Source of the DNA: Marivibrio halodurans
Lineage (GTDB): Bacteria > Pseudomonadota > Alphaproteobacteria > UBA8366 > Aestuariispiraceae
Direction: 5' to 3'
DNA length: 64,000 bases
Assembly: GCF_017963645.1 (NCBI RefSeq)
Contig: NZ_JAGMWN010000001.1
Coordinates: 806,001-870,000 of the forward strand
Position numbers and translations under genes: made by a program. Shown here piece after piece: positions 2,969-20,812 of the stretch (positions are counted from its first letter, which is position 1; every line of letters begins with the position of its first letter). Under the pieces are notes generated by a model, which saw only the letters and a program-made list of their open reading frames with translations, was not told where the DNA came from and did not search any database.

Positions 2969-3676
2969 CTATTCCCGGGGCGTCCAGTGCCAGGTGATCT
3001 TTCGATCCACGAGGCGCCAGCCGCACCGTTCATAAAGACGAATGGCGTCCAGATTGGTTTCCTGCGTGCCGGCCCGGCCGATCGCGCAGCGCCCACCACA
3101 GGCGGCGGAAAGCGCGGTCATCAACCGCCGCCCGACCCCCCTGCCCTGCATCCTGGGCGCGACGGCGATCAGATCGATGATCGCGACCCCGCGCCGCTCC
3201 AGCACCAGCAGGAAACCTTGCACCATGCGCGCATCGTCCGGATCGGTCGCGATCAGCACCGTATCCGCCCGGCCGCGCAGATCGTTCTCGACCCAGGCAC
3301 CCTTGAAGGCGACGGCGGCACGGTCCGGAATCTCCGGATCGGCGTGCCAACGATCATGGGTAAAGGCCGCGCCCGCGATCTCCCGGCAGGCATTGGCGTC
3401 CGCCGGATCGCCCGGCCGAATACCCGACGGCATCCCGACGGCCGGGTCGAGCGGGCCTTCATAGGTGACGAGCGTCTCGATCCGCCGAAACCCGAGACCG
3501 GAGAGATCGACCACCGGGTCGAACCGCCCATGGATCAATTGAATACCGATCGGACGGGCGGTCGCGACCGCCTCCACGGCCTGCCCGGGGTCCTCCAGGC
3601 GCCAGACCGGCCCCTTCATGAATTGGGCATCGAAGGGTTGATCGCTGACGCCGTTCGGCGGTCTAAACGCCATCAT
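2969..3676 (-). CDS. GNAT acetyltransferase at the end of the sugar island
   Basis: A 235-residue protein whose C-terminal half is a GNAT domain. The acetyl-CoA loop is Q-G-R-G-V-G (about residues 177-182) in VAPRMQGRGVGRRLM, and the ending is LYERCGWRLVDRKITWHW. The N-terminal half resembles that of WecD-like sugar N-acetyltransferases (IGIQLIHGRFDP), which acetylate amino groups of nucleotide sugars. Its start overlaps the stop of the preceding methyltransferase by four bases (ATGA), so translation is probably coupled. Context suggests it modifies an amino sugar or nonulosonate for surface or flagellin glycan, but that role is inferred. Confidence 0.75.
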   Translation of the reverse strand: MMAFRPPNGVSDQPFDAQFMKGPVWRLEDPGQAVEAVATARPIGIQLIHGRFDPVVDLSGLGFRRIETLVTYEGPLDPAVGMPSGIRPGDPADANACREIAGAAFTHDRWHADPEIPDRAAVAFKGAWVENDLRGRADTVLIATDPDDARMVQGFLLVLERRGVAIIDLIAVAPRMQGRGVGRRLMTALSAACGGRCAIGRAGTQETNLDAIRLYERCGWRLVDRKITWHWTPRE

Positions 3677-4503
3677 CCCTCGCCCGACGCACGCAGCATG
3701 CCGCGCAGCGTATATTTACCGCTGGGCTCCACCAGCCGCTCCAGCAACAGAACACGGAAGCCCGCCCGTTGCGCCAGCATCGCATAGGATATGGTGGAGA
3801 AGGCGCAATAATGCTCGATCGCGAATTCCTCCCGCGCGGGCCCTTCCGGATCGTCGAGGGCGCCTTCCGCGTCCGGCAGTTCGACATGGACGAGCCCGCC
3901 CGGCATCAGCACGTCATGGGCACGGGCCAGCATCGCCACCGGGTCGGGCACATGCTCCAGCACCTTGTTGAAGGTGACGAGGCCGAACCGCCGGTCGAAC
4001 CGGTCGGTCATGAAATCCGCCACGATCCCCTCGACCTCCGCCACATCGCGCGCATGCTCGGCCGCCCGCGCGTCCGGGTCGAGGGCCGAGGCGACCCAGC
4101 CCATCGCCCGCATCGCGGCCGGAAAGACCGCGAGGCCGGAGCCGATATCGAGCAGCGTGCGCTCCCCGTGCGGGTCGAGGCGTCGCGCGGCGATATCGAC
4201 GAAGGCGACGCGCCCACGATTGTCCGAGCGCTCCGGCGGCAATCCCATGATCTTCTCATAGATCGCCCGGACCCCACCCTCGCCATAGGTACGGTCCCAA
4301 TAATCCCCGCCATAGAGCGCGGATAGATCCATATCGTGCCGGTTCACCACATGGCCGGTGGAGGGGCTGCGCCACACTTCGCGCCGATAGGGAGTGAAGC
4401 CGAAATCGGTCTCCGACGGCGGCGGCTCCTCGAAGACGGCGACCCGCCGCCAATCGACGGCACCGGTCACCGGACAATCGATCTCCGACGTCTCGCCGGT
4501 CAT
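3673..4503 (-). CDS. Class I SAM-dependent methyltransferase
   Basis: A 276-residue methyltransferase using the start at 4503 (MTGETSEIDCPVTG); the frame is open to 4605. The SAM-binding motif I is LLDIGSGLAVFP, followed by motifs ALDPDAR and FDRRFGLVTFNKVLEHVPDP. This is the pattern of the Methyltransf_11/23-like families often found in O-antigen and flagellar glycan clusters. The N-terminal section with paired DCPVTG and TPYRREVW pieces is also typical of such sugar or lipid methyltransferases. It is coupled by ATGA overlap to the following GNAT gene and is separated from the upstream formyltransferase by 319 bases. The substrate is unknown; a sugar is likely from context. Confidence 0.8.
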   Translation of the reverse strand: MTGETSEIDCPVTGAVDWRRVAVFEEPPPSETDFGFTPYRREVWRSPSTGHVVNRHDMDLSALYGGDYWDRTYGEGGVRAIYEKIMGLPPERSDNRGRVAFVDIAARRLDPHGERTLLDIGSGLAVFPAAMRAMGWVASALDPDARAAEHARDVAEVEGIVADFMTDRFDRRFGLVTFNKVLEHVPDPVAMLARAHDVLMPGGLVHVELPDAEGALDDPEGPAREEFAIEHYCAFSTISYAMLAQRAGFRVLLLERLVEPSGKYTLRGMLRASGEG

Positions 4504-4822
4504 GCGACCACCATCCGGCGCGGCGATAGCCATTGCTTCCCTGAACGGACCCCGGCAAGGGCCGGATAGCCGATCGCCCCCCACGTCCGTCCCGGCCCAC
4601 CCCATGAGGCGCGCACGGACACGAGACGCCTCATTACACGCATCATGTGATGAATGATATCCTCCCCCTCATGCGATGCATGGCGTGTCTTCCAAGCCAT
4701 CCTGCGCGAAGCCTGCGCGTCCGTGGCCCCGCCCACCCCTCCGCGAAGGGGCGATCCACCATCGGGACGGTAAGCCAAGTCGGATCGTGGCGAAAGGCCC
4801 GGTGCCGGCATGGGCCGCCGCC
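4504..4822. other. Gene-free gap inside the sugar island
   Basis: This 319-base stretch separates the formyltransferase stop from the methyltransferase start on the minus strand. It contains an 8-base inverted repeat (ATGAGGCG at 4604-4611 with CGCCTCAT at 4627-4634, 15-base loop) without a T-tract on either side, so it is not a clear terminator. The methyltransferase frame is open across its first 102 bases (to 4605), which could shorten the gap. No convincing promoter was seen, and no protein with recognisable features is encoded. Confidence 0.4.
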
Positions 4823-5584
4823 TCACAAGGCCGCCGTAAACGCCTCGAACTGACGAACGCACCGTGATTTGAGAACCGCCGGCATGAAGGAATAATATCG
4901 CCCGATATAAAGTTGCGGTTGGCTGATGAATTGACCGTAATTCGCCAGCATCTCCAGCCCCTGGAGGCTGATATCGATGCAGACGTCGGTATTCGCCTTG
5001 CGAAGCTGATGCAGTTTCATACCCCGGTGGATCGGGATCGGCATTCGCATCACGACGCCGCCCCGGTCCAATTCCGGCGCGACGCGGTGCAGCGTCGTCA
5101 CCAATCCTCGGAAATCCCCGTGATAGACGGCCCAGAGATGAGTATCGAGACCACGATATTTCTCCGGATTGGCGCCGTGCAGATTGACGATCCGCTCCGG
5201 CGCCACGTCGATTACATTCTGGTTGAGGCGGCCGGTCCCGAACACCAGCAACGCGTCCAACCCGGCGGCCTTCATGCTAGCCACGGCTTTCGGATCGTTC
5301 AGGTCGCGGTGCGTCTCCACCTCCGCCACGTCGCTCAGGCCGGGATCGGCGCCGTCGAACCAGGTCGCGCGTTCGAAGACCGCGCGCTCATCCTCGAACG
5401 GATGATGCGTCTCGAAATCGGCCGAAATCTCCCGCCGTTCCTCGAACACCCGCACGACATCGTGCCGCGCCGCGATGGCCTGTACGAACCGCACGTGATG
5501 CGGGGTTTCCGTCGTAAGGATGCCGACCCGCAGGCGCCCCCCCTTGGCCGCCGTGCCGGCGTCGAATGTCACTGCCACCGCCAC
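4823..5584 (-). CDS. Formyltransferase-family protein (sugar N-formyltransferase-like)
   Basis: 253 residues with the formyltransferase fold shared by methionyl-tRNA formyltransferase and sugar N-formyltransferases, which use N10-formyl-tetrahydrofolate. The catalytic Asn-x-His is in VNLHGANPEKYRGLDTH (about residues 133-149) and the catalytic Asp in APELDRGG. The protein lacks the C-terminal tRNA-binding domain of Fmt. It starts at a GTG (5584) with TTGAGGG upstream and overlaps the end of the amidotransferase gene by 16 bases, so the two are cotranslated. Placement directly after amidotransferase and nonulosonate synthase genes suggests it formylates an amino group of the flagellin sugar. 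That substrate is inferred. Confidence 0.8.
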   Translation of the reverse strand: MAVAVTFDAGTAAKGGRLRVGILTTETPHHVRFVQAIAARHDVVRVFEERREISADFETHHPFEDERAVFERATWFDGADPGLSDVAEVETHRDLNDPKAVASMKAAGLDALLVFGTGRLNQNVIDVAPERIVNLHGANPEKYRGLDTHLWAVYHGDFRGLVTTLHRVAPELDRGGVVMRMPIPIHRGMKLHQLRKANTDVCIDISLQGLEMLANYGQFISQPQLYIGRYYSFMPAVLKSRCVRQFEAFTAAL

Positions 5585-6690
5585 CCCTCAATCAGGAAAC
5601 CGGGTATCTTCCAAGCACCGTTCTCCCGAACCCAAATATCGCGGTTCCTGAACCCCTCCGCGACCTCCCAGAACCATTCCACCGGCCGCCTGGCAAAGGC
5701 GCAGAAGCGTCGGATATCCTCCTCCGGCACCTGCATTCCGGTTTCGGCGAGGTGCCGGATCGCCTCGGCGCGACTCATGTCCCCGCGCCTGATCTGGACG
5801 GAAAGATTGTCGAAGCTTCGCGTTATCCCGAATTTGTACCACTTCAAAAAATGATGCAACGAGATGAAGTGGCAATCGATATCGGCGAAGGCCCAACTTC
5901 CGGTCTTCAGGTCGCCTTCGTCATGGGCGAAGCCGCGCGAGGCGGCGATCCGTGTATTCTCGAAACTGTCCCATTTGAAGAAGGCGCCAAGGAAGATGGA
6001 ACGTGGCTGAAAATCCGGGTCGCGGGGGAAGCGGTAGGGGACGAGATCGGACTCCGTCAGCCCCTCGCGCCCGACCCAGTAATCCGCGTCGGTCGATTGC
6101 AGGCAGCCGTGCCTCGCCAGCCAGTCCGCGTCGAGCGTATCGGCGAGACGCTCCACCTCGTTCCCGCCATATTCAAGTTGCGGATTCTCTCCCCATACGA
6201 TGAGCGGAATGCGCAGCCGAACCGCCAGCGTGATCGGAATCGCGAAAAGCGCCATATGCATCGGCAGGCCCGTCGCGCCCTTGTCCTCATAGGCGGCGAT
6301 CATGAACTTGCGCTCGACCTCCGGGTCGATCGTGAAGTCGATGTGATCGATGCCGAGCTTGCGGACCATGTGGTCCAGGTTGCGCTGGCCGATCTCCGTC
6401 CGCGCCGGGGTGCGCCAGGTGACGCCCAGCGGCTTCAGGCCGTATTCCTGCGCCTTGATGATCTGATACCAGCTATCCTTCCCGCCCGAGACCGGCACGA
6501 TACAGTCATAGCCACCGGCCGAGCGCGCCTTGGTCTCCGCCACCAGTTGCTCGAAGGCGGCGGCGCGGGCGGTCCAATCGATCCGTTCCTCCTTGTCGCG
6601 ATGGCCGTGACAGGCGGTGCAGACGCCCTCCGCATCGATCTCGATGCCGGGGCGGGTGTCGGGCAGGATGCAGACTTGGCAATAGCGCAT
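5569..6690 (-). CDS. N-acetyl sugar amidotransferase (WbpG/PseA/LegG-like)
   Basis: 373 residues. The N-terminus has a Cys-rich metal motif (CQVC and, about 20 residues later, CTAC), followed by the PP-loop ATPase motif SGGKDS in IVPVSGGKDSWYQI (about residues 66-72). This arrangement is that of the N-acetyl sugar amidotransferase family, which turns an N-acetyl group into an acetamidino group on nucleotide-linked sugars such as pseudaminic- or legionaminic-type precursors. Relatives such as WbpG usually receive ammonia from HisH/HisF-type partners; none is encoded in this window. It is followed by, and overlaps, the formyltransferase gene. Confidence 0.85.
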   Translation of the reverse strand: MRYCQVCILPDTRPGIEIDAEGVCTACHGHRDKEERIDWTARAAAFEQLVAETKARSAGGYDCIVPVSGGKDSWYQIIKAQEYGLKPLGVTWRTPARTEIGQRNLDHMVRKLGIDHIDFTIDPEVERKFMIAAYEDKGATGLPMHMALFAIPITLAVRLRIPLIVWGENPQLEYGGNEVERLADTLDADWLARHGCLQSTDADYWVGREGLTESDLVPYRFPRDPDFQPRSIFLGAFFKWDSFENTRIAASRGFAHDEGDLKTGSWAFADIDCHFISLHHFLKWYKFGITRSFDNLSVQIRRGDMSRAEAIRHLAETGMQVPEEDIRRFCAFARRPVEWFWEVAEGFRNRDIWVRENGAWKIPGFLIEGWRWQ

Positions 6691-6712
6691 GATCCTCGTC
6701 GCCTCTCCGCGC

Positions 6713-8551
6713 TCAGGGTGTCCAGGCGGCGTGCCGATCCAGGAACAGCTTCGCCGCCACCAGGGAGAACAGGAACTTGCTGTCGCTGTTGAGGGTCACC
6801 TCGTGATCGAGCAGTTCGGCGAAGCGATCCCGGTTCACGATATCGAACAACGGCCCCTCCTCCAGCAACCGCTCCCGCACGTCCGGCCGCGTGAAATCGA
6901 CGAAGCTCGTCACCGGGGCATTGATGCCCTGCTTACGCGGATTGTCGAGGATCGAATCATCCACCAGCCCACGTCCCGCCTCCCGCAGCAGGATCTTCGG
7001 CAGGTGCTTCTGGATCAGATGCCGGTCGGGCACGGTGAACAGGAATTCCGCCAGATCGCGGTCGAGATAGGGGGCGCGATTCTCCACCGACCAGCGCATG
7101 GACGCCAGATCATCGTCATGCAGCATGACCGGCACGGTCTCATGGAAAATCTCGTTCAGCATACGCCGCCGGATCGGGGAGCCCGGATAGGGTACTTCCC
7201 GGTGCGGCTCGTCGAACGGCTCCGTCAGAAAGGTGGAAAATCGTTCCCGGCCGAGGAAGATATGCTCCCGCCGGTCCGGCGCCTCGATGAAGGCATGGGG
7301 ATTCTGAAGCTCGGGATTGCGGACGAAGCGTCCATAGGTCTCGCGCCATCCGGCGACGCGGTCCTCGAAACCGGGCGCGTCCTTCATGCTGGCGAGCCAG
7401 AAGAGATAATGGTCGTAATAGCCGGTGAAGAGTTCGTCCGCGCCCGTGCCCCCGAGCGCGACCTTGAAGCCCGCCTCGTGTATCGCCTCGCTGACCAGCC
7501 AATGGAGATAATAGGAGATCGTCAGCGGCGGGCCGTCGAAATAGCCGATAAGATCGTCCAATCGTTCCAGGAAATTCCCGCGCGGGATCGGAATCCGCAC
7601 GTTGGGCAGGTCGAGCCGCGCGAGCGTCGCGCGGATCGCCGCCGTCTCGTCATAGCGCGGGTCGTCCTCGACGATGGAAAAACAGGTGATCGGATGATCG
7701 TGCACCGTCCGCGCGACGCCGGCGATCACGTTGGAATCGATCCCGCCCGACAGCCGCACCGCGATTGGAACGTCCGCCCGAAGACGCCGCGCGATGGCCC
7801 GGTGGACACGCTCCCGCGCGCCCTCCAGCGCCTGCTCCGCCGTCATCCCCTCGTCCGGCCGCGCCTCCAGCATCCAATAGCGGCGCGGCGCCGGGTCCTC
7901 CGGCCGGTCGAGGATGGCGAGGCTGGCGGCCGGGAAATCCGCGACATCGGTATAGAAGGTCCGGCGCTCGCTCAGCAGCGCCTTATAACCATTGACCAGA
8001 TAGCGGCGCAGTTGGTCGCGATCGACGCTCGGCTTGCGACCGGCGAGCGCCGCCAGAACCTTGATCTCGGAGGCGAACAGAAATCCTCCCTCGCCATCGC
8101 GCATCCAATAAAGCGGCTTCTCCCCGAAGCGATCGCGGGCCAGGGTCAGCCGGCCGCTCTGCGCATCGAAAAGCGCGAGCGCGAACATCCCCTCGAACCG
8201 ATCCAGGGCATCCGGGCCCCAGACCCGGAAGGCCTCCAGCACCACTTCCGTATCACCTTCGGTTCGGAAGGACCGGCCGGCCGCGCGCAGTTCCGCGCGC
8301 AGTTCGGGGTAATTGTAGATCTCGCCGTTATAGACGAGCGTCAGGCCGTCCTTCGTGAAGGGCTGGTCCGAACGCGCATCGAGATCGACGATCGAAAGAC
8401 GCGTATGAAGAAGGGTGAGGTTCCCGCCCGGCGCCGCGGCATGGAAGGCCCCCCGGCCGTCCGGTCCCCGGTTCGCCATCAGGGCGAGCGCGCGCCCCTC
8501 CCGCTCCGGGGAAAGCGGCGTGGCGGCAAGGCGTCCGGCTATTCCGCACAT
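6713..8551 (-). CDS. asnB: Asparagine synthase-type glutamine amidotransferase (AsnB family)
   Basis: 612 residues counted from the Met directly before the catalytic Cys (MCGIAGRL, ATG at 8551); the Cys must be residue 2 for an Ntn glutaminase. The N-terminal half is the class II glutaminase (RGPDGRG, VYNGEIYNY). The C-terminal half is the synthetase with PP-loop SGGIDSN (about residue 265) and LGGTGADELFTGYY. AsnB-like genes inside glycan clusters often amidate the carboxyl group of sugar acids rather than make asparagine. Between the nonulosonate synthase and the sugar amidotransferase that role is plausible here, but true asparagine synthesis cannot be excluded. Confidence 0.88.
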   Translation of the reverse strand: MCGIAGRLAATPLSPEREGRALALMANRGPDGRGAFHAAAPGGNLTLLHTRLSIVDLDARSDQPFTKDGLTLVYNGEIYNYPELRAELRAAGRSFRTEGDTEVVLEAFRVWGPDALDRFEGMFALALFDAQSGRLTLARDRFGEKPLYWMRDGEGGFLFASEIKVLAALAGRKPSVDRDQLRRYLVNGYKALLSERRTFYTDVADFPAASLAILDRPEDPAPRRYWMLEARPDEGMTAEQALEGARERVHRAIARRLRADVPIAVRLSGGIDSNVIAGVARTVHDHPITCFSIVEDDPRYDETAAIRATLARLDLPNVRIPIPRGNFLERLDDLIGYFDGPPLTISYYLHWLVSEAIHEAGFKVALGGTGADELFTGYYDHYLFWLASMKDAPGFEDRVAGWRETYGRFVRNPELQNPHAFIEAPDRREHIFLGRERFSTFLTEPFDEPHREVPYPGSPIRRRMLNEIFHETVPVMLHDDDLASMRWSVENRAPYLDRDLAEFLFTVPDRHLIQKHLPKILLREAGRGLVDDSILDNPRKQGINAPVTSFVDFTRPDVRERLLEEGPLFDIVNRDRFAELLDHEVTLNSDSKFLFSLVAAKLFLDRHAAWTP

Positions 8552-8591
8552 GGGGTCGTTCCGCGCGTCGCGCCCCTCACGTCGCGCCCCT

Positions 8592-9608
8592 TCACTCCGC
8601 CAAATCCGATCGGCGCAGGATGGCGCCCTTGGCAAGTGCCCGGTTCAGACGTTTGCCGATGACCCGGTCGATTTCCATCGCCGGAATCTCGCTGCCCGGG
8701 CGCGCGAACATCAGGTCCTCCCGCGCGAGGCGCCGGCCGTCCGGCAGATCCCGCGCCGCGACGACGCCCTTGCGGATCGCGGCGATGGCCTCGCGCTCGC
8801 AGGGCTGCGGCGTCTTCTCCCACTCTCCGCGCGCGTCGACGATGGCCGGGATCGTCCGGGCGAGATAGGCCATGTCCGCCGGATCCGCCGAGAGGGCGTG
8901 ATCGCGAAATTCCCGGCCGTGCTTCCGGTCGGTGAAATGCACCTCCACCACCCGCGCGCCCAGGGCGACGGCGGCCAGCACGGCCTCCGGCCCGATCACA
9001 TGGTTGGAATATCCCACCGTGACGGGCGCATACCGCGCCGTCATGAAGGGAATGGAAAGCAGGTTGGCCTCCTCCATCGGCGTCGGATAGGCGCTGACGC
9101 AATGCAGGACCGCCAAGCGCCCGGCCAGCGCGGCCTCCCCTACCTCCTCGCGCATCCAACCGACCGCGCGGTCCACCTCATCGATCCGGCCGCCGCCGGT
9201 TGAGAGCAAGACCGGCAAACCGGTGCGCGCCGCCGCCCGGATCGTCGCGGGCGAGGTCAGGTCCCCCGACATGATCTTGATCGCGGTGCCGAGTTCCGCC
9301 AGCAGAGGAACCCAATCTTCCGTCACCGGGGTGGACAGGAAGGCGACACCGGCCTTGTCCGCCTCCGCCTTCAGGTGGCGATGCGCCGCTTCGTCCAGGG
9401 CGAAGCGCCCCACCCGTTCCAGCCGCGCGGCATCCTCGGAAGTCACGAAACGCTCCGGCGTATAGCTCTGGAACTTGACCGCGTCGGCGCCGGCCCGCGC
9501 GGCGAGGTGAAGCAGGTCGACCGCCTTTTCCGGATCGCCCTCGTGGTTCACGCCTATTTCCGCGATGAGGACGACCTCTCGCGCCGTATCCTTGCCGAAA
9601 AGGCGCAT
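8592..9608 (-). CDS. Nonulosonic acid synthase (NeuB/PseI/LegI family)
   Basis: 338 residues. Condenses phosphoenolpyruvate with a six-carbon amino sugar to give a nine-carbon sugar acid. The NeuB barrel begins with IAEIGVNHEGD (residues 14-24) and has KFQSYTPE, AFLSTPVTEDW and the metal-binding region around VGYSNH and VEVHFTD. The C-terminal 60 residues form the SAF (antifreeze-like) domain, with EIDRVIGKRL and GAILRRSDL. Which acid is made (neuraminic, pseudaminic or legionaminic) cannot be told from sequence alone. It starts 14 bases after the Maf gene. The CMP-sugar synthetase and epimerase expected for the pathway are not in this window. Confidence 0.9.
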   Translation of the reverse strand: MRLFGKDTAREVVLIAEIGVNHEGDPEKAVDLLHLAARAGADAVKFQSYTPERFVTSEDAARLERVGRFALDEAAHRHLKAEADKAGVAFLSTPVTEDWVPLLAELGTAIKIMSGDLTSPATIRAAARTGLPVLLSTGGGRIDEVDRAVGWMREEVGEAALAGRLAVLHCVSAYPTPMEEANLLSIPFMTARYAPVTVGYSNHVIGPEAVLAAVALGARVVEVHFTDRKHGREFRDHALSADPADMAYLARTIPAIVDARGEWEKTPQPCEREAIAAIRKGVVAARDLPDGRRLAREDLMFARPGSEIPAMEIDRVIGKRLNRALAKGAILRRSDLAE

Positions 9609-9622
9609 TACGGGATGTGCTC

Positions 9623-11611
9623 CTATAATTCCGCGATCAGGGTGTCGGCAAGTTCGGCGAAAACCGTGTCCAAACGCTCGATCTCCGCCGCGCTCCGTTC
9701 CGCCGCCATATCCATGAAGGCTTCCCGCCCTTCCTCCGGCAAGCGGCGGACGGTGATATAGAGGAACTGATAGAACATCAGGGTCGTTCCCCAGAGATAG
9801 GCATAGACCGTCCGGTCGATCGGGTCCTCGCTCATCGCCCAGAACAGGTCCTTGATCGCGTCGAACAATTCGACCGGATCGCGGATATCGCGGAACAGCG
9901 CCGCGATGTCCCCGAGCATCCGGGACATCTCGCGCTTCAGGGCCTCGATCTCGCCGCTATCGAAGCCATGATAATCACCGCCATCCTCCAGCGTATTGGC
10001 GACAAGTTGCAGATCGCGGGCCTTGATGGCCGCGTCGCTCGTCAAGGTTACCGCGCGCGGCAAGCGCGGAATCGTACCATGGATGCGCGTTCCATCGCTC
10101 AGATTATAGACCGTCGTGCCGGGGAAGACCCGCAACAGGTTCGACATGTACATGGCGGCATAAAGAAAGCTCGTATTCGCGAACACGGTGCCGCCCAGAC
10201 TACCGGGGCGGCGGATGCCGTACTTGCTCGCCGCCGCGTGCTCCGGGTGCGTCTCCAGAAATTTGTCGTCGGCGATGTAGATCGACTTGCGCGAATGATG
10301 CTGGTTCTTGTCGCGGCTTCCGAGATCGACGCCGACCAGATATATCTCGCGAAAGCCGAGGGCTAGCATCGCGCGCACCGCCGCGTTCGAAACCGTCGGC
10401 GCCGCCAGGAAAAGCGGCCGGTGGTCGCGCCCGAAGAAATGCGTCGCGGAGACGGAATCCCGGAAATAGAGGTAATTCTCGCCGAACAGCGCCGGCACCC
10501 CCGGATCGACCGTGTTGCAGGCGATCAGGGTAATACCGCTCAGATCGTATTTTTCCGAAAGGCCGCTCAGAATCTCCAGCGGACCCGGCGTGTTCTCGGT
10601 GTCGACATGGAAGTCCGGCTTGATGCCGTAACCGAGGAGCGCGCCCAGCCCCGTGCCGCAGGTGATAAGGACGGCCTTCTCCTTGTTCTCGCGGATGAAG
10701 TCGATGGCGCCATCGACCGACGGACCGGAGGCCACCACGATCACCGGCGCCGTCAACATCAGCCGTCGGCGGTCCTGAAGCAGCTTGTGGCGATGGCGCC
10801 GCAGATTGCGGAAACCATTGCGCAGCATCACGATTTCATCCTCGAAGAAACCGGGATTGGCCGCGATGACCGGTAGGCGGCTCACCAATTCGTCGAGGGC
10901 GCCGCGCGTGAAGCTCGACTGATAGTGAAGCAACAGGTAGCTGCCGTCGATCAGACCGAAATGATGGTGGCGCACATAGATATAGAGATCGTTGGCCGCC
11001 TGATAGGTATCCTGGGCCAGAATGAACCGCATACTGCCGCCCCGTTCCTCGAGGATTTCCTGCCAGCGGGTCCAATCGACGGTTTCCATGGAATGGCGGA
11101 TGAATTCCGGGAACTGCTCGACAATGACGAGATTGCGGACGGGTAGATTCTCCAGCAGCCGTTCCACACCCAGGCCGAGCCCGAGGCCAAGCAGGATCAG
11201 ATAGCCACCATCCGCGTCCGGTTCCGATTCCGGTTCGCATTCCTTCTCGTCCAGCCAATCCAGCGCCTCGTTGACCACGCGTTGATTACAGAGTTGCGTG
11301 TCCGACGCGCGTTTATAGAACGGGATCTTGATCCGTCGCGGCTTGGCGAGGAAGGCTTCGACCTGCTCGTCGGTATAGGCGACCGCCCCACCTTCATAGA
11401 AGGCGGTATGGCCAAGATCGATATTGATCGTCCCATCCTCGAGCGATCCGATCATCCGGCTGATGGGGGAATCGATCGCCTCCACCTGTTCCGCGATCGC
11501 GGGCGAAACATCGCGCAGGACGCCCAGATTCCGTTCGAACAGCGTATCCGCCTCTCCGTCCGGATCATCGGGGATATCGAACAGCGACGCGCCGAAATCG
11601 AAGTCGCTCAT
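9623..11611 (-). CDS. maf: Maf-type flagellin glycosyltransferase (DUF115/MAF_flag10)
   Basis: 662 residues with the start at 11611, whose ATG overlaps the stop of the upstream TPR gene (ATGA). The frame stays open upstream through that gene, but MSDFDFGASLFDIPDD is the natural start. The central MAF/DUF115 domain contains the family motif SGPS at residues 295-298 and, about 30 residues on, TCGTGLGALLGYGIKPDFH and DTENTPGP. Maf proteins transfer pseudaminic- or legionaminic-type acids onto Ser/Thr of flagellin in the cytoplasm before export. The N-terminal 250 residues include a Rossmann-like LILLGLGLGLGVE segment. Its position between an FlmG-like gene and the nonulosonate synthase supports the role. 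Confidence 0.88.
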   Translation of the reverse strand: MSDFDFGASLFDIPDDPDGEADTLFERNLGVLRDVSPAIAEQVEAIDSPISRMIGSLEDGTINIDLGHTAFYEGGAVAYTDEQVEAFLAKPRRIKIPFYKRASDTQLCNQRVVNEALDWLDEKECEPESEPDADGGYLILLGLGLGLGVERLLENLPVRNLVIVEQFPEFIRHSMETVDWTRWQEILEERGGSMRFILAQDTYQAANDLYIYVRHHHFGLIDGSYLLLHYQSSFTRGALDELVSRLPVIAANPGFFEDEIVMLRNGFRNLRRHRHKLLQDRRRLMLTAPVIVVASGPSVDGAIDFIRENKEKAVLITCGTGLGALLGYGIKPDFHVDTENTPGPLEILSGLSEKYDLSGITLIACNTVDPGVPALFGENYLYFRDSVSATHFFGRDHRPLFLAAPTVSNAAVRAMLALGFREIYLVGVDLGSRDKNQHHSRKSIYIADDKFLETHPEHAAASKYGIRRPGSLGGTVFANTSFLYAAMYMSNLLRVFPGTTVYNLSDGTRIHGTIPRLPRAVTLTSDAAIKARDLQLVANTLEDGGDYHGFDSGEIEALKREMSRMLGDIAALFRDIRDPVELFDAIKDLFWAMSEDPIDRTVYAYLWGTTLMFYQFLYITVRRLPEEGREAFMDMAAERSAAEIERLDTVFAELADTLIAEL

Positions 11612-13569
11612 ACCGCGTCTCCTTTCTGGGCCAACGCGCGATAGGCGGACATGAGGGTCTCCGTCATGGCTTCCCCCCAACCGGACAGGAAATCGGGCGC
11701 GCGGCTGCGGGTCCCCGCCTCGGAGAGCCGCGCCCGCGCCTCGGCCGCGGCCGCCCCGTCGCCGGCCGCGCGCGCCGCCATCGCCACGGCGTCCGTCGGT
11801 GTCTCCGCGATCATGCCCGAAAGGCCGAGGGCGATCAGCAGGCTGTCCGTCATCCGCTCTCCCGGGACGCGCCCGCGCGCGGTGAAGACCGGACGTCCCG
11901 CCGTCAGCGCCTCCGCGACGCCCGCGCTCCAACAGGGGCCGAGTTGCAGGACGGCGTCCGCTTCGGCCAGGGCTTTCGCCGCCTCCGACGTCCCTTCCCC
12001 GGTAAACACAAACCGGCCTTCCGCTCCGGTGCCCGCGAAAGCCGCCTCGACGGAAGAGCAAGCATCCTTGCCGCCCACCAAATCCGCCGGCACGAGAAGC
12101 CTGAGCGCCGCGTTCTCCGCACAGGCCGCGCCGAGCGCCGCTATCAACGCATCGTCGATTTGTGCCTGATCGATGCTGAGGGCCAACAGGCCACCGGGGG
12201 AATCGCCCCCCCCGTCCCCTTCGGGCGCCGTCGTCGCCCCGTCGACTGCTTCACCTTCCGCCATCAGGATGGGCAAACGGTAAATCCCCCCATCGACACG
12301 CAGAATGGCGATATCCTCGGCGAGCGCATCCTCCGCCTCCGGATAGATCGCCGCATCACCGAGAACCGCGTCGAAGCCCTGTGACGCGGCGGATTCCGGC
12401 AAGCCGCCCAAACGAATGGCCGCGGGCGCCGGACGGCGCATGAAAAGCTGGGGTCTGCCGCCCGGCATATGGCCATCCAAATCGATCAGAAGGTGGATAC
12501 CGTCGTTCCGAATGATGGTATCCAGCGTCAGGTCGTCGATCTCCCGCGCGTCGATCCAGGAAGCGACCGTCCCCTGAACGCGTCGTGCGATAGAATCCTC
12601 GACGATATCGTTGGCATAGACATAGATCAGGATGTTGGCGAAGCCGTGCGCGCTGAGCAACGGCCAGAGGAAATCCAATCCGCCGCGCAGGCTGAAACGC
12701 GAGGTCACGAGACCAACCTTCAGCGCACCCTTCTCGATCGCGCGTGATGGCAGGTTATCGTCAGGAGCGACCGGAAATATCTCGGCATAGATACGTTCGG
12801 CCTGGGCGATATAGGCCCGGTCCGCGCCGGGGTCCCGGGCGATATCGGCGAGCATCTGAGACAAGGCCTCGGGCGTCACGCGGCCGTCGGTCAGCATCGC
12901 CTCGTGGATATCGCGCATGTCGGCAAGCCGTCCGGCGCGGCCCAGGCATCCGGCGGTGCGCGCTTCGTCTATCGGGGTCGTGGCGCCCATCTCGCTGATC
13001 TTGCGCAAGGCCATCAGGGCCGGCACCACGCGCCCCAAGTCCATCAACCGCATCGCATATGTCCGCCACGCGCCCGGGTCCTTGCCCCGCGCCTCGGCCT
13101 CCCGGCGATACATCTCCACCGCGCGATCGGCATTGCCGAGGCCGAGGAGTTCGTCGCCCACGCGCGCATATTGCGGCTCGGAGATATTGAGGAACGCCTC
13201 CTCGAAGCTTCCGAACCATTCCGGCAACAGGCTCCGGATGGTCGGATGCGGCGCGAGTGTCGCCGCGATCTTGCCGTAGAACAGACTATCGCCGAGCCGA
13301 CCGAGCTTCGCATAGGCGATCGCAAGGGCATCGGCGAATTCCTGGCAATTCGGGCTGAGGTCATGCGCGAGCTTGAGCAGTTCCAGCGTACGCGCCGGCT
13401 CGTCCATCCTCGCGGCGACGAGACCGAGGACATAGACCGCCTCGGGCACATTGCCATGCTGCTTCAGGACCGATTCCGCGATGGAAATGGCGCGATCCGT
13501 CTCTCCCTTGGAAAGCCCGTCGATCGCCTCGGCGATATCGTCCTTGTAGGATTCGGAAACAGTTGCCAT
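11608..13569 (-). CDS. TPR/OGT-like flagellin glycosyltransferase (FlmG-like)
   Basis: 653 residues from the ATG at 13569; the frame is open to 13665, but those 32 codons carry no family features. Residues 1 to about 270 are helical TPR-like repeats (EAVYVLGLVAARMDEPARTL; FADALAIAYAKLGRL). The C-terminal half follows the O-GlcNAc transferase GT-B pattern: KVGLVTSRFSLRGG, then IDLDGHMPGGR and RRPAPAAIRLGGLP, and near the end LGPCWSAGVAEALTAGRPVF and SLLIALGLSGMIAETP. TPR plus an OGT-like domain is the architecture of Caulobacter FlmG, which binds flagellin through its TPRs and glycosylates it with pseudaminic acid. It is the first gene of the island and is coupled to maf. Similarity to FlmG is by architecture, from memory. 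Confidence 0.75.
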   Translation of the reverse strand: MATVSESYKDDIAEAIDGLSKGETDRAISIAESVLKQHGNVPEAVYVLGLVAARMDEPARTLELLKLAHDLSPNCQEFADALAIAYAKLGRLGDSLFYGKIAATLAPHPTIRSLLPEWFGSFEEAFLNISEPQYARVGDELLGLGNADRAVEMYRREAEARGKDPGAWRTYAMRLMDLGRVVPALMALRKISEMGATTPIDEARTAGCLGRAGRLADMRDIHEAMLTDGRVTPEALSQMLADIARDPGADRAYIAQAERIYAEIFPVAPDDNLPSRAIEKGALKVGLVTSRFSLRGGLDFLWPLLSAHGFANILIYVYANDIVEDSIARRVQGTVASWIDAREIDDLTLDTIIRNDGIHLLIDLDGHMPGGRPQLFMRRPAPAAIRLGGLPESAASQGFDAVLGDAAIYPEAEDALAEDIAILRVDGGIYRLPILMAEGEAVDGATTAPEGDGGGDSPGGLLALSIDQAQIDDALIAALGAACAENAALRLLVPADLVGGKDACSSVEAAFAGTGAEGRFVFTGEGTSEAAKALAEADAVLQLGPCWSAGVAEALTAGRPVFTARGRVPGERMTDSLLIALGLSGMIAETPTDAVAMAARAAGDGAAAAEARARLSEAGTRSRAPDFLSGWGEAMTETLMSAYRALAQKGDAV

Positions 13570-13892: not shown

Positions 13893-14807
13893 TTACTGCA
13901 GGAGCGCCAGGATAGCCTGCTGCTGCTGCCCGGAGATCGCCAACGACTGAATACCGAGCTGCTGCCGGGTCTGGAGGGCCACCAGATTGGCGCCTTCCTC
14001 GTTCAGGTCGGCCAGCGTCAGCTTGTCGGAACCGATCTGCAGCTCGTTCACATAGGACTCGGTGAAGTCCAGGCGGGTCTGCAGAATGGCGACGTTGGAG
14101 CCGAGCTCGGCCGAGGTCGCGCGAAGACGGCTGATCGCGGAGTCGATGCGCGTGACCATCGTCGACGCGAACGAAACCTTCGAGTTGTTCTCGCCCATCG
14201 CGGTGAACACGCCACCGGACAGCCCGAGCGCCGACGCCTGCACCGCCGTACCGCTCGCCGAGAAGAAGGCGACCGTGAAGAGCGCACCGAGCGACAGCCC
14301 TTGGTCGGCGGCCGTGGCGATCAGGTTCTTACCGGAAATCTCGATCTCCGAAGCCGTGCGGACACCGAAGGTGATTTCCAGCTTGGAGCTCGTGTTGTTC
14401 AGGAGGTTCAGACCCTGATAGGACGCATCCTCGACCAGCTGGAAGACCTGCAGCGAGATCTCCTTGAACTGGCGGTCGGCGGCCTGACGTTCCTCGGTCG
14501 ACTGAGACTTGGCGGCCTCGACGACACCCTTGAGCTGCTTGAGCAGGGAGTCGATGGCCTGGGTCGCGCCGAGGGCCGAGTTCAGGGAGCTGACGCCCTG
14601 GTCGATGCCGTCCTTGCGCAGGGTGAAGTCCGATGCGCGATCGCTGAGCGCCTTGGCGCGGAAATAGTTCACCGCGTCGTCGACCACGCTGTTGACTTCC
14701 TTACCGGTCGACAGACGGGTCTGGGTACGCTCGGAGAGCGACTGGGTGCGCTGAAGGGAGAGGAGCGACTGCCGTTGGGCGGAAGTCAGGGAAATATCAT
14801 TCGCCAT
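13893..14807 (-). CDS. fliC: Flagellin
   Basis: 304 residues, the filament subunit exported through the flagellar type III system. The N-terminal D0/D1 region has SLLSLQRTQSLSERTQTRLS and the conserved ALSDRASDF. The C-terminal D1/D0 region has RIDSAISRLRATSAELGSN and NLVALQTRQQLGIQSL. The middle variable part (about residues 150-215) is short and Ser/Thr/Gly-rich, where O-glycosylation would be expected. No Cys is present. It lies next to flgL, flaF, flbT and the glycosylation island. It is transcribed alone, with its own terminator. FlbT and FlaF encoded nearby are known in relatives to act on flagellin mRNA and protein. No sigma-54 element was found upstream. Confidence 0.96.
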   Translation of the reverse strand: MANDISLTSAQRQSLLSLQRTQSLSERTQTRLSTGKEVNSVVDDAVNYFRAKALSDRASDFTLRKDGIDQGVSSLNSALGATQAIDSLLKQLKGVVEAAKSQSTEERQAADRQFKEISLQVFQLVEDASYQGLNLLNNTSSKLEITFGVRTASEIEISGKNLIATAADQGLSLGALFTVAFFSASGTAVQASALGLSGGVFTAMGENNSKVSFASTMVTRIDSAISRLRATSAELGSNVAILQTRLDFTESYVNELQIGSDKLTLADLNEEGANLVALQTRQQLGIQSLAISGQQQQAILALLQ

Positions 14808-15094: not shown

Positions 15095-16147
15095 ATGGTC
15101 GACCGTGTCAGCACCTCCGGGCGATTGCTTAACGACCTCATGGTGATGCAGAGCAGCCAGCAATCGCTGGAACTGCTGCAGTATCGCGTCTCCACGGGCA
15201 AGAAGTTCCAGCAGCTCAAGCTCTACGGCAACGACGCGCCGCGCATCGTAGACCTCCGGAACGAGATCGCGACGCGTCAGGCCTATATGCGCTCCATGGA
15301 CCTGACCGAGGGCATCACCCGGTCCTACGACGCGGTCCTGGATCGGTTGGCGGAGGCGGCAAGCGAGATCATCGATATCTCATCGCCGATCGACGCGGAG
15401 GACCCTTCCTTTCTGACCGACACCACCGTGCTGGCCGAGAATCTGATGTTGGAGATCGAGTCCAACCTGAATGTCCGAATCGGCGACCGATATATCTTCG
15501 CCGGCACGAACTACGGCACGGCCCCGGTCAACGACCTGCGCGACCTCGCCCTCTATAATGAAACCGACATCGGCACCGCCAACGCCGGCGAAACCGCCGA
15601 CACGATCCCCGAATTCACCGTCGACGCGGGCGGCGCGGCGACGGTGCAAAGTTATCACTCAAGCTGGACGGCCAGCCCAACGACCGACGCGGCGGCTTGG
15701 AGAAAGTCCACGCTGACGATCAACGACCGGCAGACCGTGAGCTATGGCATCACGGCGACGGACCCGGCGTTCCAGAAGCTGATCGACGCGGTCGTGCGCC
15801 TGAAATCGGCCGTGACCAGTCCCGGCCCCGCCGACACCAACGGCAACGGCGAGACGGTCGACGAACGCAGAAGCATGCTGGGGCAGGCGATATCCGCCGC
15901 CGAGGAGGCGCGCGTCGCGCTCCGCCAGTTGCAGAGCGAGAACGGCGCGATCATCAACCAGTTCGACAAGACCCGGGTAGAGCACGAGAACTTCATCGCC
16001 ATTTCGCAAGGCTCGCTCGAGGATATCGAAGGAGCGAGCAAGGAAGAAGCAGCGGTGCAGATATCAACGCTTCAGGCGCAACTCCAGGCATCCTACACCA
16101 CCATTGCCCGGCGCGCGCAGCTCAGCCTCGTCAACTTCCTGGGATAA
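15095..16147 (+). CDS. flgL: Hook-filament junction protein FlgL (HAP3)
   Basis: 350 residues. FlgL connects hook-associated protein FlgK to the filament. The N-terminal flagellin-like helix region is MVDRVSTSGRLLNDLMVMQS, with VSTGKKFQQLKLYGNDAPRI in place of flagellin's first conserved block. The C-terminal region has LGQAISAAEEARVALRQLQS and ends in SLVNFLG. A Gly/Asp/Thr-rich central domain (about residues 145-245) separates them. It diverges from the flagellin gene and is preceded by a strong sigma-54 promoter at 14955. flgK, its usual neighbour, is not in the window. The N-terminal sequence distinguishes it from a second flagellin. Confidence 0.9.
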   Translation: MVDRVSTSGRLLNDLMVMQSSQQSLELLQYRVSTGKKFQQLKLYGNDAPRIVDLRNEIATRQAYMRSMDLTEGITRSYDAVLDRLAEAASEIIDISSPIDAEDPSFLTDTTVLAENLMLEIESNLNVRIGDRYIFAGTNYGTAPVNDLRDLALYNETDIGTANAGETADTIPEFTVDAGGAATVQSYHSSWTASPTTDAAAWRKSTLTINDRQTVSYGITATDPAFQKLIDAVVRLKSAVTSPGPADTNGNGETVDERRSMLGQAISAAEEARVALRQLQSENGAIINQFDKTRVEHENFIAISQGSLEDIEGASKEEAAVQISTLQAQLQASYTTIARRAQLSLVNFLG

Positions 16148-16246
16148 CCGAAAGCATCCGCCGCCTCTTTGTCGTAGGTGCGGGGATTCATATCTATTTT
16201 CAATTAGATGACGGATAACTTAAGGCAATATCCGCGACATGTCGGC

Positions 16247-16286
16247 TTAACCGATACTTTACGAACCGACGGTAGACTGACACTAT
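16247..16286 (+). promoter_or_regulatory. Possible CtrA-controlled promoter before flaF
   Basis: TTAA-CCGATAC-TTTAC (16247-16262) differs by one base from the CtrA box TTAA-N7-TTAAC. Its second half-site is the -35 of a possible housekeeping promoter, TTTACG (16258-16263), N17, CACTAT (16281-16286). In Caulobacter, CtrA boxes often overlap the -35 of flagellar promoters. Found by eye; a chance match is possible. Confidence 0.38.
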
Positions 16287-16392
16287 CCGGCCCAGGGTCG
16301 AGAGTGACCGGAAGCGAGGTTCGAGTCGCGACGCGATCGCCGGTCCCTCGTCGGAGATTTCTCGATAGGGGCCTCTCGATGGGGATCATGTT

Positions 16393-16932
16393 TTGACGAC
16401 ACCTTATGCCAGCCAGCAACGCCAGGCATTGAACAATGCCCCCCCGCAGGCGGCGGAGGCCTGGGCCATGATCGAGATGGCGCGGCGTCTTGACGATGCC
16501 ACGAAGATGGAAGCCGGTCCCGAGCGGGACGAGGCGCTGCGCGACATGGTTCGGCGCAATTGGCGCATGTGGACTATCCTGCAGGCCTCCCTGGTCGACC
16601 CGGAAAACACCGCCCCGGCCGAAATTCGCCAGAACCTGCTGAGCCTGTCGAACTTCATCGACAAGCGTTCCGTCGAATGCCTGAGCGATATCGACCCCGC
16701 GAAGGTCGCGGTGCTGATCAACATCAACCGCCAAATCGGCGCGGGTTTGATGGGCAACCCTTCCGACGATCCGGAAGAGGCGAAACGCCTGCGCGAGGAT
16801 GCCGCGGCCCGCGAGGCCGCATCGCAAGCGACCGGCGACAAGACCGCCGCCGATGATCGAACCGCCGCCTCCCCGGACGGTGCGGAGGGCGCGGCCACGC
16901 GCGCCAACGCCACCACCGATACCGAGGCCTGA
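16393..16932 (+). CDS. flaF: Flagellar biosynthesis regulator FlaF
   Basis: 179 residues starting at TTG (16393), with GGGG about eight bases upstream; no ATG or GTG in frame fits better. FlaF in alphaproteobacteria promotes flagellin translation and secretion and works against FlbT. The conserved core is residues 1-115, with LDDATKMEAGPERDEALRDM, RRNWRMWTILQASL, NLLSLSNFIDK and PAKVAVLININRQIGAGLMG. The last 55 residues or so are an Ala/Asp/Thr-rich tail that the usual 115-125-residue family members lack. A tiny ATG-TTT-TGA frame (16388-16396) overlaps the start. The next gene begins nine bases after the stop. Confidence 0.9.
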   Translation: MTTPYASQQRQALNNAPPQAAEAWAMIEMARRLDDATKMEAGPERDEALRDMVRRNWRMWTILQASLVDPENTAPAEIRQNLLSLSNFIDKRSVECLSDIDPAKVAVLININRQIGAGLMGNPSDDPEEAKRLREDAAAREAASQATGDKTAADDRTAASPDGAEGAATRANATTDTEA

Positions 16933-16941
16933 TCCCCGCCC

Positions 16942-17610
16942 ATGAACGGGCGCGCCGGCCGCATCCTGCTCTTGATGAAGGAGCCGGAAGCGAATTTTTT
17001 CTCCGAAATTCTTTTACGCGCGAACCGGCATCTGGCGGCCGAGCATACCGACAATATCGGTCGCCTGCGCGCCGCCGTGGCTCGTCCCGCCGGAGGCCCC
17101 ACGCGCCTAATCGCCTTCAGCACCCAGATCATCGCACCGCCCGACGTTCTGCGTGCGATCGCTTACAACGCCTATAACTTCCATCCCGGGCCCCCGAACT
17201 ATCCCGGCAGCAAGCCGAGCGCCTTCGCCGTGCTTGGCGGGGCGTCCCAGTTCGGCGTCACGCTTCATCGGATGGCGGACCGGGTGGACAGCGGGCCGAT
17301 CGTGACGACCCGCCTTTTCCCGGTGACACCCGACGCCCATGCCCGCGATCTTGCAACCGAGGCCTATGGCACCATGGCGCGGCTGGCGCTGGAACTGGCG
17401 GCGGAACTGGCGGCGGTCGATCGCCCCCTGCCGGAAAGCGGCGCGCGCTGGGCGGGTCCCACGCGCCGGATGGCGGAATACGAAGCGTTAAGACGCATCC
17501 CGCCCGGCCTCGACCAGGAGGAAACGGCCCGGCGCTTCCGGGCCTGCGAGGGAATCTATTCGATCGTACCGTCCGTACCCTCCCCCGCGGACGACATGGA
17601 CGGCGGTTAA
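16942..17610 (+). CDS. Formyltransferase-family protein between flaF and flbT
   Basis: 222 residues with the formyltransferase fold of Fmt, PurN and sugar formyltransferases. The catalytic Asn-x-His is in YNAYNFHPGPPNYPGSKPS (about residues 76-80) and the Asp in MADRVDSGPIV. There is no tRNA-binding C-terminal domain. It starts nine bases after flaF with no good ribosome binding site, so coupled translation is likely. It ends tail-to-tail with flbT, the two stop codons overlapping at 17607-17610. Location inside the flagellin control genes suggests an action on flagellin, its sugar or its translation. No such role is established; this is a second family member besides 4823-5584. Confidence 0.78.
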   Translation: MNGRAGRILLLMKEPEANFFSEILLRANRHLAAEHTDNIGRLRAAVARPAGGPTRLIAFSTQIIAPPDVLRAIAYNAYNFHPGPPNYPGSKPSAFAVLGGASQFGVTLHRMADRVDSGPIVTTRLFPVTPDAHARDLATEAYGTMARLALELAAELAAVDRPLPESGARWAGPTRRMAEYEALRRIPPGLDQEETARRFRACEGIYSIVPSVPSPADDMDGG

Positions 17611-17619
17611 CCGTCGTCC
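17598..17619. terminator. Hairpin over the overlapping stop codons
   Basis: GGACGGCGG (17598-17606) pairs with CCGTCGTCC (17611-17619), with one G-T wobble, and leaves TTAA as the loop. That loop contains the stop codons of both convergent genes (TAA at 17608-17610 on plus, TAA at 17609-17607 on minus). No T-tract follows on either strand, so termination activity is uncertain. Confidence 0.4.
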
Positions 17620-18775: not shown

Positions 18776-18839
18776 GTCACCGTCCCGAATTCGGGGCGCG
18801 TAACGTCCCGACCCGACGATTTCCGAACGCCGGCTGGTG

Positions 18840-18861
18840 ACCTCGCGCTTGGCGGGGTTTT
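18840..18861 (+). terminator. Intrinsic terminator after flaG
   Basis: ACCTCGC-GCTTG-GCGGGGT forms a short GC-rich stem (CCTCGC with GCGGGG, one T-G wobble) followed at once by TTTT (18858-18861). It lies 65 bases after the flaG stop and separates it from the sigma-54 driven fliK transcript. Confidence 0.6.
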
Positions 18862-19056: not shown

Positions 19057-19073
19057 TTCCCCACACTCGAATC

Positions 19074-19089: not shown

Positions 19090-19125
19090 CCATGCCTCTC
19101 GAACCAATCTCGGGAGACATGGCCC

Positions 19126-20793: not shown

Positions 20794-20812
20794 AGGCTAA
20801 AGGACCAAAGAG

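What the first reader, a model, noticed from the sequence alone, without database searches (positions are those of the whole stretch)
2969..13569. Both flagellin nonulosonate transferase types, FlmG/OGT-like and Maf, in one operon
The FlmG-like TPR/OGT gene and the Maf gene overlap by ATGA and are followed by a nonulosonate synthase. In well-studied bacteria flagellin is usually modified by one or the other. Having the two coupled suggests that one acts as flagellin-binding adaptor for the other, or that two different sites or sugars are handled. The degenerate middle of the OGT-like domain (no clear UDP-binding Lys region) would fit an adaptor.
Basis: partly seen in the sequence, partly recalled or inferred. 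Interest (0 to 1): 0.7.

Follow-up and report, generated by a model that had tools for sequence, protein, structure and literature searches.

The report
Eroded glycosyltransferase paired with Maf
Next to its flagellin gene this bacterium carries the sugar-adding enzyme Maf together with a look-alike enzyme whose active site seems to have worn away, most likely kept as a docking part that hands flagellin to Maf.

Summary
Confirmed: a TPR/OGT-like gene (11608-13569, -) overlaps Maf (9623-11611, -) by ATGA, followed by NeuB and sugar-tailoring genes, downstream of the only flagellin found. The pair is common: 14 of 14 family genomes, 19 of 25 Maf-bearing genomes in a 387-genome class sample, 50 of 74 named Maf loci. 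But 'two transferases' is probably wrong: of four GT41 active-site residues, 50 of 60 Maf-paired proteins keep none and nine keep one, while 45 of 49 unpaired homologues keep all four. Best reading: one active Maf plus a pseudo-glycosyltransferase kept as its flagellin-binding specificity subunit. Exceptions exist: some Maf genomes lack it. A co-encoded Maf factor, GlfM, is already known, so this is a new variant of a known kind. FlmG membership was not testable. Inactivity, binding and need for the protein are inferred; no experiment was run.

The parts
11608..13569 (-). TPR / pseudo-OGT gene (653 aa)
   Evidence: conserved beside Maf
12778..13554 (-). TPR domain, residues 6-264 (proposed flagellin-binding part)
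   Evidence: AlphaFold helices; Pfam ANAPC3 28.5 bits; flagellin binding inferred by analogy with the FlmG TPR domain (PMC7591256, passages)
13270..13272 (-). Lys100 of the LFYGK motif: 97% of 59 paired proteins, not conserved in unpaired GT41
11623..12723 (-). GT-B (GT41-like) domain, residues 283-649, eroded active site
12526..12537 (-). D345-x-x-T348 in the N-lobe, conserved only in the Maf-associated family (95% and 97% of 59)
12685..12687 (-). Arg295 at the position of XcOGT His218
   Evidence: alignments
12160..12162 (-). Gln470 at the position of XcOGT Lys388
   Evidence: alignments
11920..11922 (-). Gly550 at the position of XcOGT Thr468
   Evidence: alignments
11608..11611 (-). ATGA stop/start overlap between the two genes
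9623..11611 (-). Maf flagellin glycosyltransferase (662 aa), proposed sole catalyst
   Evidence: PF20157, PF01973; 5mu5 E 5.7e-77; model Z 37.3 to 5mu5
8592..9608 (-). NeuB-family nonulosonate synthase
6713..8551 (-). AsnB-type glutamine amidotransferase (sugar tailoring, inferred)
   Evidence: matched in 13 of 14 family loci
5569..6690 (-). WbuX-type N-acetyl sugar amidotransferase
   Evidence: TIGR03573 299 bits, cut-off 203
4823..5584 (-). formyltransferase
   Evidence: PF00551
3673..4512 (-). methyltransferase (start uncertain, ORF reaches 4605)
   Evidence: PF13489
2969..3676 (-). GNAT acetyltransferase
   Evidence: PF00583
13893..14807 (-). flagellin, the only Flagellin_N match found in the genome; proposed substrate

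Best explanation
The gene pair encodes one working flagellin nonulosonic-acid transferase (Maf) and a dedicated partner that is a pseudo-glycosyltransferase: an OGT-family (GT41) TPR protein that keeps its fold but has lost its donor-binding and catalytic residues. Proposed mechanism: the TPR arm holds newly made flagellin in the cytoplasm, the eroded GT-B body (N-lobe DxxT face) docks on Maf, and the complex presents chosen Ser/Thr of flagellin to Maf, which transfers the CMP-activated nonulosonate made by NeuB and the tailoring enzymes. SHOWN here by computation: gene coupling and its conservation, TPR + GT-B fold of the model, loss of the GT41 residues in nearly all members examined, grouping of the family, co-occurrence with Maf. 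INFERRED: catalytic inactivity, flagellin binding, Maf binding, presentation, and the identity of the sugar.
For: Coupling: 14/14 family genomes; 19/25 Maf-bearing genomes of the class sample, 24 examined; 50/74 named Maf loci, 40 directly upstream on the same strand (17 of the 50 repeat class-sample genes). All 18 class-sample genomes with a listed full-length hit have Maf (G325 left out). Among 23 genomes behind the 24 named loci without an OGT within 3 kb, 16 carry a full-length member elsewhere, two of them (G748, G757) genes already counted at another Maf locus. Erosion: four GT41 residues kept 0/4 in 50, 1/4 in 9, 3/4 in 1 (L170) of 60 paired; 4/4 in 45, 3/4 in 3, 2/4 in 1 of 49 unpaired. 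Of 20 loci, 18 members (16 new) keep 0/4 and 2 ordinary GT41 keep 4/4. Six GT41 proteins near flagellin in Maf-less genomes (four of one family) keep 4/4. Columns at least 80% conserved, paired against unpaired: C-lobe 6/25, N-lobe 6/22, TPR first half 5/0, second half 3/4. New conserved sites K100 and DxxT. With the catalytic columns removed, 59 of 60 paired proteins group together. OGT-Maf distances correlate r 0.88, partial 0.70 given flagellin, while OGT-flagellin given Maf is 0.10 (37 loci). Precedents: the FlmG TPR domain binds flagellin (passages); Maf-2 needs co-encoded GlfM (passage).
Against: No interaction was tested; the complex could not be modelled. Some Maf-bearing genomes lack the partner: G327, G349 and G388 show no full-length hit; G102 and G075 have no profile match and none beside Maf; G747 and G761 have nothing and G751 and G760 only ordinary GT41. 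So not every Maf needs it. In 22 Maf-bearing genomes of the phylum outside the class no match was found (three candidates scored per genome). The branch joining the paired group is weakly supported (49). Correlated distances can come from common descent. The protein may dock the other way round, or on something else. Real FlmG could not be compared: if it lacks the same residues and works, the erosion argument weakens.
Confidence: 0.62

Rival explanations
1. Both proteins are active: the GT41-like protein uses a different donor (for example CMP-nonulosonate, as FlmG is thought to) with re-invented residues, so that two sugars or two sites are made.
For: GT-B fold kept, model confident; FlmG, a TPR-GT protein, glycosylates flagellin with pseudaminic acid; loss of UDP-binding residues alone could reflect a change of nucleotide.
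Against: Within 59 family members the donor lobe keeps only six columns at 80% or more (A487, L491, D538, L541, P560, L578), none an obvious base or phosphate ligand except D538, which unpaired GT41 share. Six GT41 proteins near flagellin without Maf keep the canonical residues, though none is proven to be FlmG. One flagellin gene, one Maf in this genome.
Confidence: 0.15
2. The protein is a flagellin chaperone or translation/export regulator (like FlaF or FlbT) that happens to sit with Maf and does not take part in transfer.
For: In 8 of 18 members a flagellin gene lies within the roughly 1.5 kb fetched beside it, in most of these without Maf there; TPR proteins are common chaperones (general knowledge).
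Against: All 18 class-sample genomes with a listed full-length hit have Maf, and Maf occurs in only 25 of 387; distances follow Maf rather than flagellin; the window has its own FlbT.
Confidence: 0.14
3. The protein is an allosteric activator or donor-handling subunit of Maf that does not touch flagellin.
For: New conserved sites lie in the N-lobe as well as the TPR arm; 4-bp overlaps suggest coupled translation.
Against: Linkage to flagellin genes (31 of 40 upstream-adjacent named loci hold a flagellin); the FlmG TPR domain is a flagellin binder.
Confidence: 0.07
4. The pair is an accident of operon shuffling with no shared function.
For: L170 suggests that an ordinary GT41 can lie beside Maf.
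Against: Recurrence in 14 of 14 family genomes and in other families of the class, and co-occurrence in trans.
Confidence: 0.02

Closest known systems
GlfM, glycosylation factor for Maf (Unay, Kint, Viollier, Curr Biol 2024; not held, known here from one passage of PMC13317340)
   Same: A protein co-encoded with a Maf, needed for a ternary complex with flagellin; the role proposed here.
   Different: By recall GlfM is a four-helix bundle with an invariant Asp; the window protein is a 653-aa TPR + GT-B protein. No GlfM sequence was at hand, so homology was not tested.
FlmG of Caulobacter (eLife 2020, PMC7591256; passages and section 10 seen)
   Same: N-terminal TPR arm plus C-terminal GT-B-type domain; works with a NeuB pathway; the TPR arm binds flagellin.
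   Different: FlmG is an active transferase in a species without Maf; its GT construct is residues 309-596 of 596, while here the GT-B part is 367 residues with an eroded site and Maf is present. FlmG sequence not obtained.
GT41 / O-GlcNAc transferases (TtOGT 5djs, XcOGT 2jlb, SPINDLY, human OGT)
   Same: TPR + GT-B fold, Z 38.1 over 499 residues to 5djs, 33.7 over 509 to 2jlb.
   Different: H218, N384, K388, T468 (XcOGT) replaced by R, I, Q, G.
Maf-1 type flagellin transferase with its own C-terminal TPR (Unay 2024, passage)
   Same: A TPR part gives flagellin recognition to Maf.
   Different: There in cis; here Pfam finds no TPR in the Maf, its model has the build of 5mu5, and the TPR lies on a separate protein.

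Membership tests
Maf flagellin glycosyltransferase (9623-11611) | PF20157 and PF01973 domains | tested here: met
   146 and 97 bits
Maf flagellin glycosyltransferase (9623-11611) | fold of the solved Maf with a sialyltransferase-like core | tested here: met
   5mu5 Z 37.3 over 603 residues, 5.5 A; then archaeal HPPK 8sbu Z 13.4 and CstII 1ro7 Z 10.9 over 197
Maf flagellin glycosyltransferase (9623-11611) | transfers nonulosonate to flagellin | not testable with these tools
   needs biochemistry
GT41 (OGT-like), 11608-13569 | TPR repeats plus GT-B fold of OGT type | tested here: met
   Pfam Glyco_transf_41 47.2 bits, cut-off 25
GT41 (OGT-like), 11608-13569 | active-site residues equivalent to XcOGT H218, N384, K388, T468 | tested here: not met
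   R295, I466, Q470, G550 in the window; 0/4 in 50 of 60 paired proteins
FlmG class of flagellin transferases | sequence relationship to Caulobacter FlmG | not tested
   no FlmG sequence obtained with the tools at hand
FlmG class of flagellin transferases | TPR + GT-B architecture | tested here: met
   architecture of FlmG
FlmG class of flagellin transferases | catalytic activity on flagellin | not testable with these tools
   active site eroded by GT41 standards, so doubtful
GlfM-type Maf factor | co-encoded with Maf | tested here: met
GlfM-type Maf factor | four-helix bundle with invariant Asp (recalled) | tested here: not met
   653-aa TPR + GT-B model
GlfM-type Maf factor | ternary complex with Maf and flagellin | not testable with these tools
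   complex modelling was not available

The most novel reading that the evidence does not exclude
A protein O-glycosyltransferase of the OGT lineage was demoted to a non-catalytic flagellin-presenting subunit and its chemistry handed to the unrelated enzyme Maf. This happened once in an ancestor of many Rhodospirillales-type bacteria, giving a third, so far undescribed way (after TPR in cis and GlfM in trans) for Maf to find its flagellin sites.
Probability: 0.48. Interest if true: 0.75.

Novelty: new variant of a known kind. Interest (0 to 1): 0.62.

Why it matters
How cytoplasmic flagellin transferases choose acceptor and site is poorly understood (PMC7591256, section 10). A recognisable pseudo-enzyme partner of Maf, found with most Mafs sampled in this class, would explain how many alphaproteobacterial Mafs, among them those of several Magnetospirillum species, find flagellin. 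It would tell people who rebuild Maf systems in E. coli to add this gene, and it would be a clear case of one glycosyltransferase family becoming the scaffold of another.

Tried and rejected
Rejected: 'unusual coexistence of two transferases' (the pair is common in this class and one partner is eroded). Rejected: plain gene decay, since the paired proteins are long ORFs with newly conserved sites; exceptions are copies cut by contig ends (such as L168, L173) and G745, split between two frames. Considered: OGT-Maf fusion genes as proof of contact; none among the ORFs of the loci scanned. Considered: a TPR domain inside these Mafs; Pfam finds none in the window Maf or 10 others. Checked whether the solved Maf 5mu5 belongs to the paired type: its best match among 98 Mafs is only 35% identical, so undecided. 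The lysine missing from 5djs is explained by its title, mutant K341M. G325 looked like a full-length member without Maf but is a multi-repeat ordinary GT41 protein. FlmG of Caulobacter was looked for through low-scoring hits; this gave canonical GT41 proteins near flagellin genes, not a proven FlmG. Plasmid search: one weak Maf match. GlfM could not be aligned for want of a sequence.

Limits of the counts. In the 49-protein unpaired set the fetched loci L017 and L018 were left out (L018 is truncated; L017 was simply not taken in) and L068 was left out because its match began in the TPR part; six of the 49 come from Maf-bearing genomes (G006 twice, G327 twice, G349, G388), the rest from genomes without a Maf match. 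Of 50 named paired proteins 17 were dropped as copies of the class-sample set. Two of the 18 members (L230, L232) are copies of proteins already. Searches scored three candidates per genome and cut their hit lists. On the Maf tree some 'unpaired' labels rest on loci with about 1.5 kb of flank, and L168 was labelled unpaired because its OGT is a fragment. pdb_via rows are a second look at Foldseek's ranking, so absent folds are not excluded. Paper searches showed no report of this pair (listings only, one search showed 20 of 32 and one search showed 8 of 16); the most relevant papers (Curr Biol 2024, Trends Microbiol 2022, the 5mu5 paper) are not held, so prior description is not excluded.
Full report
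OBSERVATION. The window lies at G000:C11:806001-870000 of a 4.18 Mb genome. On the minus strand run flagellin (13893-14807), a TPR/OGT-like gene (11608-13569), Maf (9623-11611), NeuB (8592-9608), AsnB-type amidotransferase (6713-8551), WbuX-type amidotransferase (5569-6690), formyltransferase (4823-5584), methyltransferase (3673-4512) and GNAT (2969-3676). The OGT-like stop and Maf start share ATGA. The genome shows one match each for Flagellin_N, the Maf N-domain and the TPR-OGT protein.

FOLD. Sequence alone ties the protein to GT41 weakly (47 bits, residues 278-422) and to TtOGT and XcOGT in the PDB (E 1.6e-16 and 7.1e-14). AlphaFold2 with 42 sequences gives pLDDT 88.4, pTM 0.87, a TPR arm of helices 6-264 and a GT-B body 283-649. 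Foldseek and VIA-align put TtOGT first (Z 38.1, 499 residues, 4.0 A), with SPINDLY, XcOGT and human OGT behind. The Maf model (pLDDT 90.6) matches the solved Maf 5mu5 over nearly its whole length (Z 37.3, 603 of 632 residues, 5.5 A); in its core come archaeal HPPK (Z 13.4) and the sialyltransferase CstII (Z 10.9).

HOW COMMON IS THE PAIR. In 14 of 14 genomes of the family (7 genera) a TPR-OGT gene lies just upstream of a Maf. Much of the operon recurs: flagellin is matched in 13 of 14 loci (the other ends at a contig edge), and five genomes lack one to three of the NeuB, AsnB-type, WbuX-type or formyltransferase matches in the fetched stretch. In 387 class genomes, Maf occurs in 25. I examined the surroundings of one Maf in each of 24 of these, 18 outside the family and six in it (G212, a fragment, was not examined, nor the second Mafs of G102, G188 and G263): 19 have the OGT gene nearby, five (G327, G349, G388, G102, G075) do not. 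Of the 19, 15 have it directly upstream on the same strand, two are convergent (G188, G263) and two have it about 2 kb downstream of Maf (G150, G230). The 18 genomes with a listed full-length profile hit all have Maf, G325 being left out as a multi-repeat ordinary GT41 protein; the list is cut near E 1e-40 and three candidates were scored per genome, so weaker members in Maf-less genomes could be missing. A scan of named genomes with a Maf alignment gave 74 loci; 50 have an OGT within 3 kb, 40 of these directly upstream, 12 with exactly a 4-bp overlap, and 31 of the 40 also hold a flagellin. The named set is not independent of the class sample: 17 of its 50 OGTs repeat it. It includes Aestuariispira, Hwanghaeella, Curvivirga, Pacificispira, Magnetospirillum, Paramagnetospirillum, Terasakiella, Zavarzinia and Desertibaculum. 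Of the 24 loci without an OGT within 3 kb, the 23 genomes behind them were searched: 16 carry a full-length member elsewhere (in G748 and G757 the gene already seen at another Maf locus), one has a copy split between frames, G759 has one in pieces on two contigs, G765 has an N-terminal fragment at a contig end, G751 and G760 have only ordinary GT41 proteins, and G747 and G761 have nothing. In the roughly 1.5 kb fetched beside the 18 members read, eight show a flagellin and six another Maf. Outside the class, 22 Maf-bearing genomes of a 397-genome phylum sample gave no match at 1e-20, three candidates being scored per genome.

IS THE PARTNER AN ENZYME. I aligned 60 Maf-paired proteins (27 of the class and family samples, window included, plus 33 named ones) with 49 GT41 homologues not beside Maf and with XcOGT and TtOGT. 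The four test positions were chosen from recalled OGT biochemistry (XcOGT H218, K388; the Asn before the lysine; the TT motif), with numbering read. K388 matters: the crystallised TtOGT is the mutant of its equivalent, K341M (title). Paired: 50 of 60 keep none of the four, nine keep one, one (L170, an atypical downstream gene) keeps three. Unpaired: 45 keep four, three keep three, one keeps two. The window has R, I, Q, G. The unpaired set includes six proteins near flagellin genes in Maf-less genomes of three families (four from one family); all keep 4/4. A later batch, found by profile and not by residue, repeats the split: 18 members 0/4 (16 of them new), two ordinary GT41 4/4. Conservation has also moved: columns at 80% or more are 6 against 25 in the C-lobe and 6 against 22 in the N-lobe (paired against unpaired), but 5 against 0 in the first half of the TPR arm and 3 against 4 in the second; TPR columns of the unpaired set align less surely. 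K100 (LFYGK) and D345-x-x-T348 are nearly invariant in the family and not in other GT41. This is the pattern of a pseudo-enzyme held by selection for something other than transfer.

HISTORY. With the catalytic columns left out, 59 of 60 paired proteins group apart from 51 others and only L170 falls outside (2 label changes against 37 in shuffles; FastTree, and the joining branch has support of only 49). On the Maf tree (98 Mafs, FastTree) pairing is clustered (11 changes against 30.7), and the 14 paired Mafs of the family form one branch (99) apart from seven fetched unpaired paralogues of family genomes. Pairwise distances of OGT and Maf correlate (r 0.88; 0.70 with flagellin held fixed), more than OGT with flagellin (0.74; 0.10 with Maf held fixed) over 37 loci; common descent inflates all of these.

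MECHANISM. Known: the FlmG TPR arm binds flagellins and is needed for efficient modification (PMC7591256, passages). Known: Maf proteins find flagellin either by a C-terminal TPR of their own (Maf-1) or through a co-encoded factor, GlfM, in a ternary complex (Maf-2) (Unay et al. 2024, seen only as a passage in PMC13317340; that GlfM is a four-helix bundle is recalled). Pfam finds no TPR in the window Maf. I therefore propose that the TPR/pseudo-OGT is the specificity subunit of this Maf: TPR arm on flagellin, GT-B body on Maf, one catalyst. Dead-enzyme step about 0.85, adaptor step about 0.7 given that, together about 0.62 (my estimates).

COMPARISON AND NOVELTY. It works like GlfM but is not GlfM by architecture. 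It looks like FlmG but stands beside Maf and fails the GT41 active-site test; whether real FlmG would pass that test is not known here. The idea of a Maf partner is known; this kind of partner was not seen in the listings of the paper searches, though the key subscription papers were not readable. Hence 'new variant of a known kind'. The sugar itself is unknown: amidotransferases and formyltransferase suggest an amidino- or formyl-bearing nonulosonate, by inference only. No CMP-nonulosonate synthetase was seen in the operon; of two over-cut-off CTP_transf_3 genes elsewhere one reads like KdsB and one like SpsF (the names are my reading of the sequences).

Noticed in passing
G001, G004, G005, G006 (family genomes): These genomes carry 6, 7, 9 and 8 Maf N-domain matches, of which one in each lies beside the TPR/pseudo-OGT. 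What the other Mafs modify is unknown; of the 23 named loci without any OGT, 22 show no flagellin either.
   Followed up: partly
window 16942-17610 (+): A second formyltransferase-domain gene (PF00551, 43 bits) lies among the flagellar genes, besides the one at 4823-5584.
   Followed up: no
window 15095-25494: FlgL/flagellin-like, FlbT, FliK, FlgD, FlgE-type and FliF genes: the glycosylation operon borders flagellar genes.
   Followed up: no
G000:C11:570034-570585: An SpsF-like cytidylyltransferase far from the operon is a candidate CMP-nonulosonate synthetase.
   Followed up: partly
G582, G644, G649, G704, G720, G406 (phylum sample): In these genomes outside the class Maf is a 1168-1249-residue open frame with two matches to the Maf N-domain, a different build from the about 660-residue alphaproteobacterial ones.
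   Followed up: no
L160, L168, L188: MAG records titled Mesoflavibacter, Acidobacteria and Stygiobacter hold loci of the alphaproteobacterial type; the titles are probably binning or naming errors.
   Followed up: no
L140 8819-16533, L141, L138, L143-L145: In Maf-less genomes catalytically canonical TPR-GT41 genes sit near flagellin genes, in L140 also near FlbT and FlaF: candidates for stand-alone flagellin transferases.
   Followed up: partly
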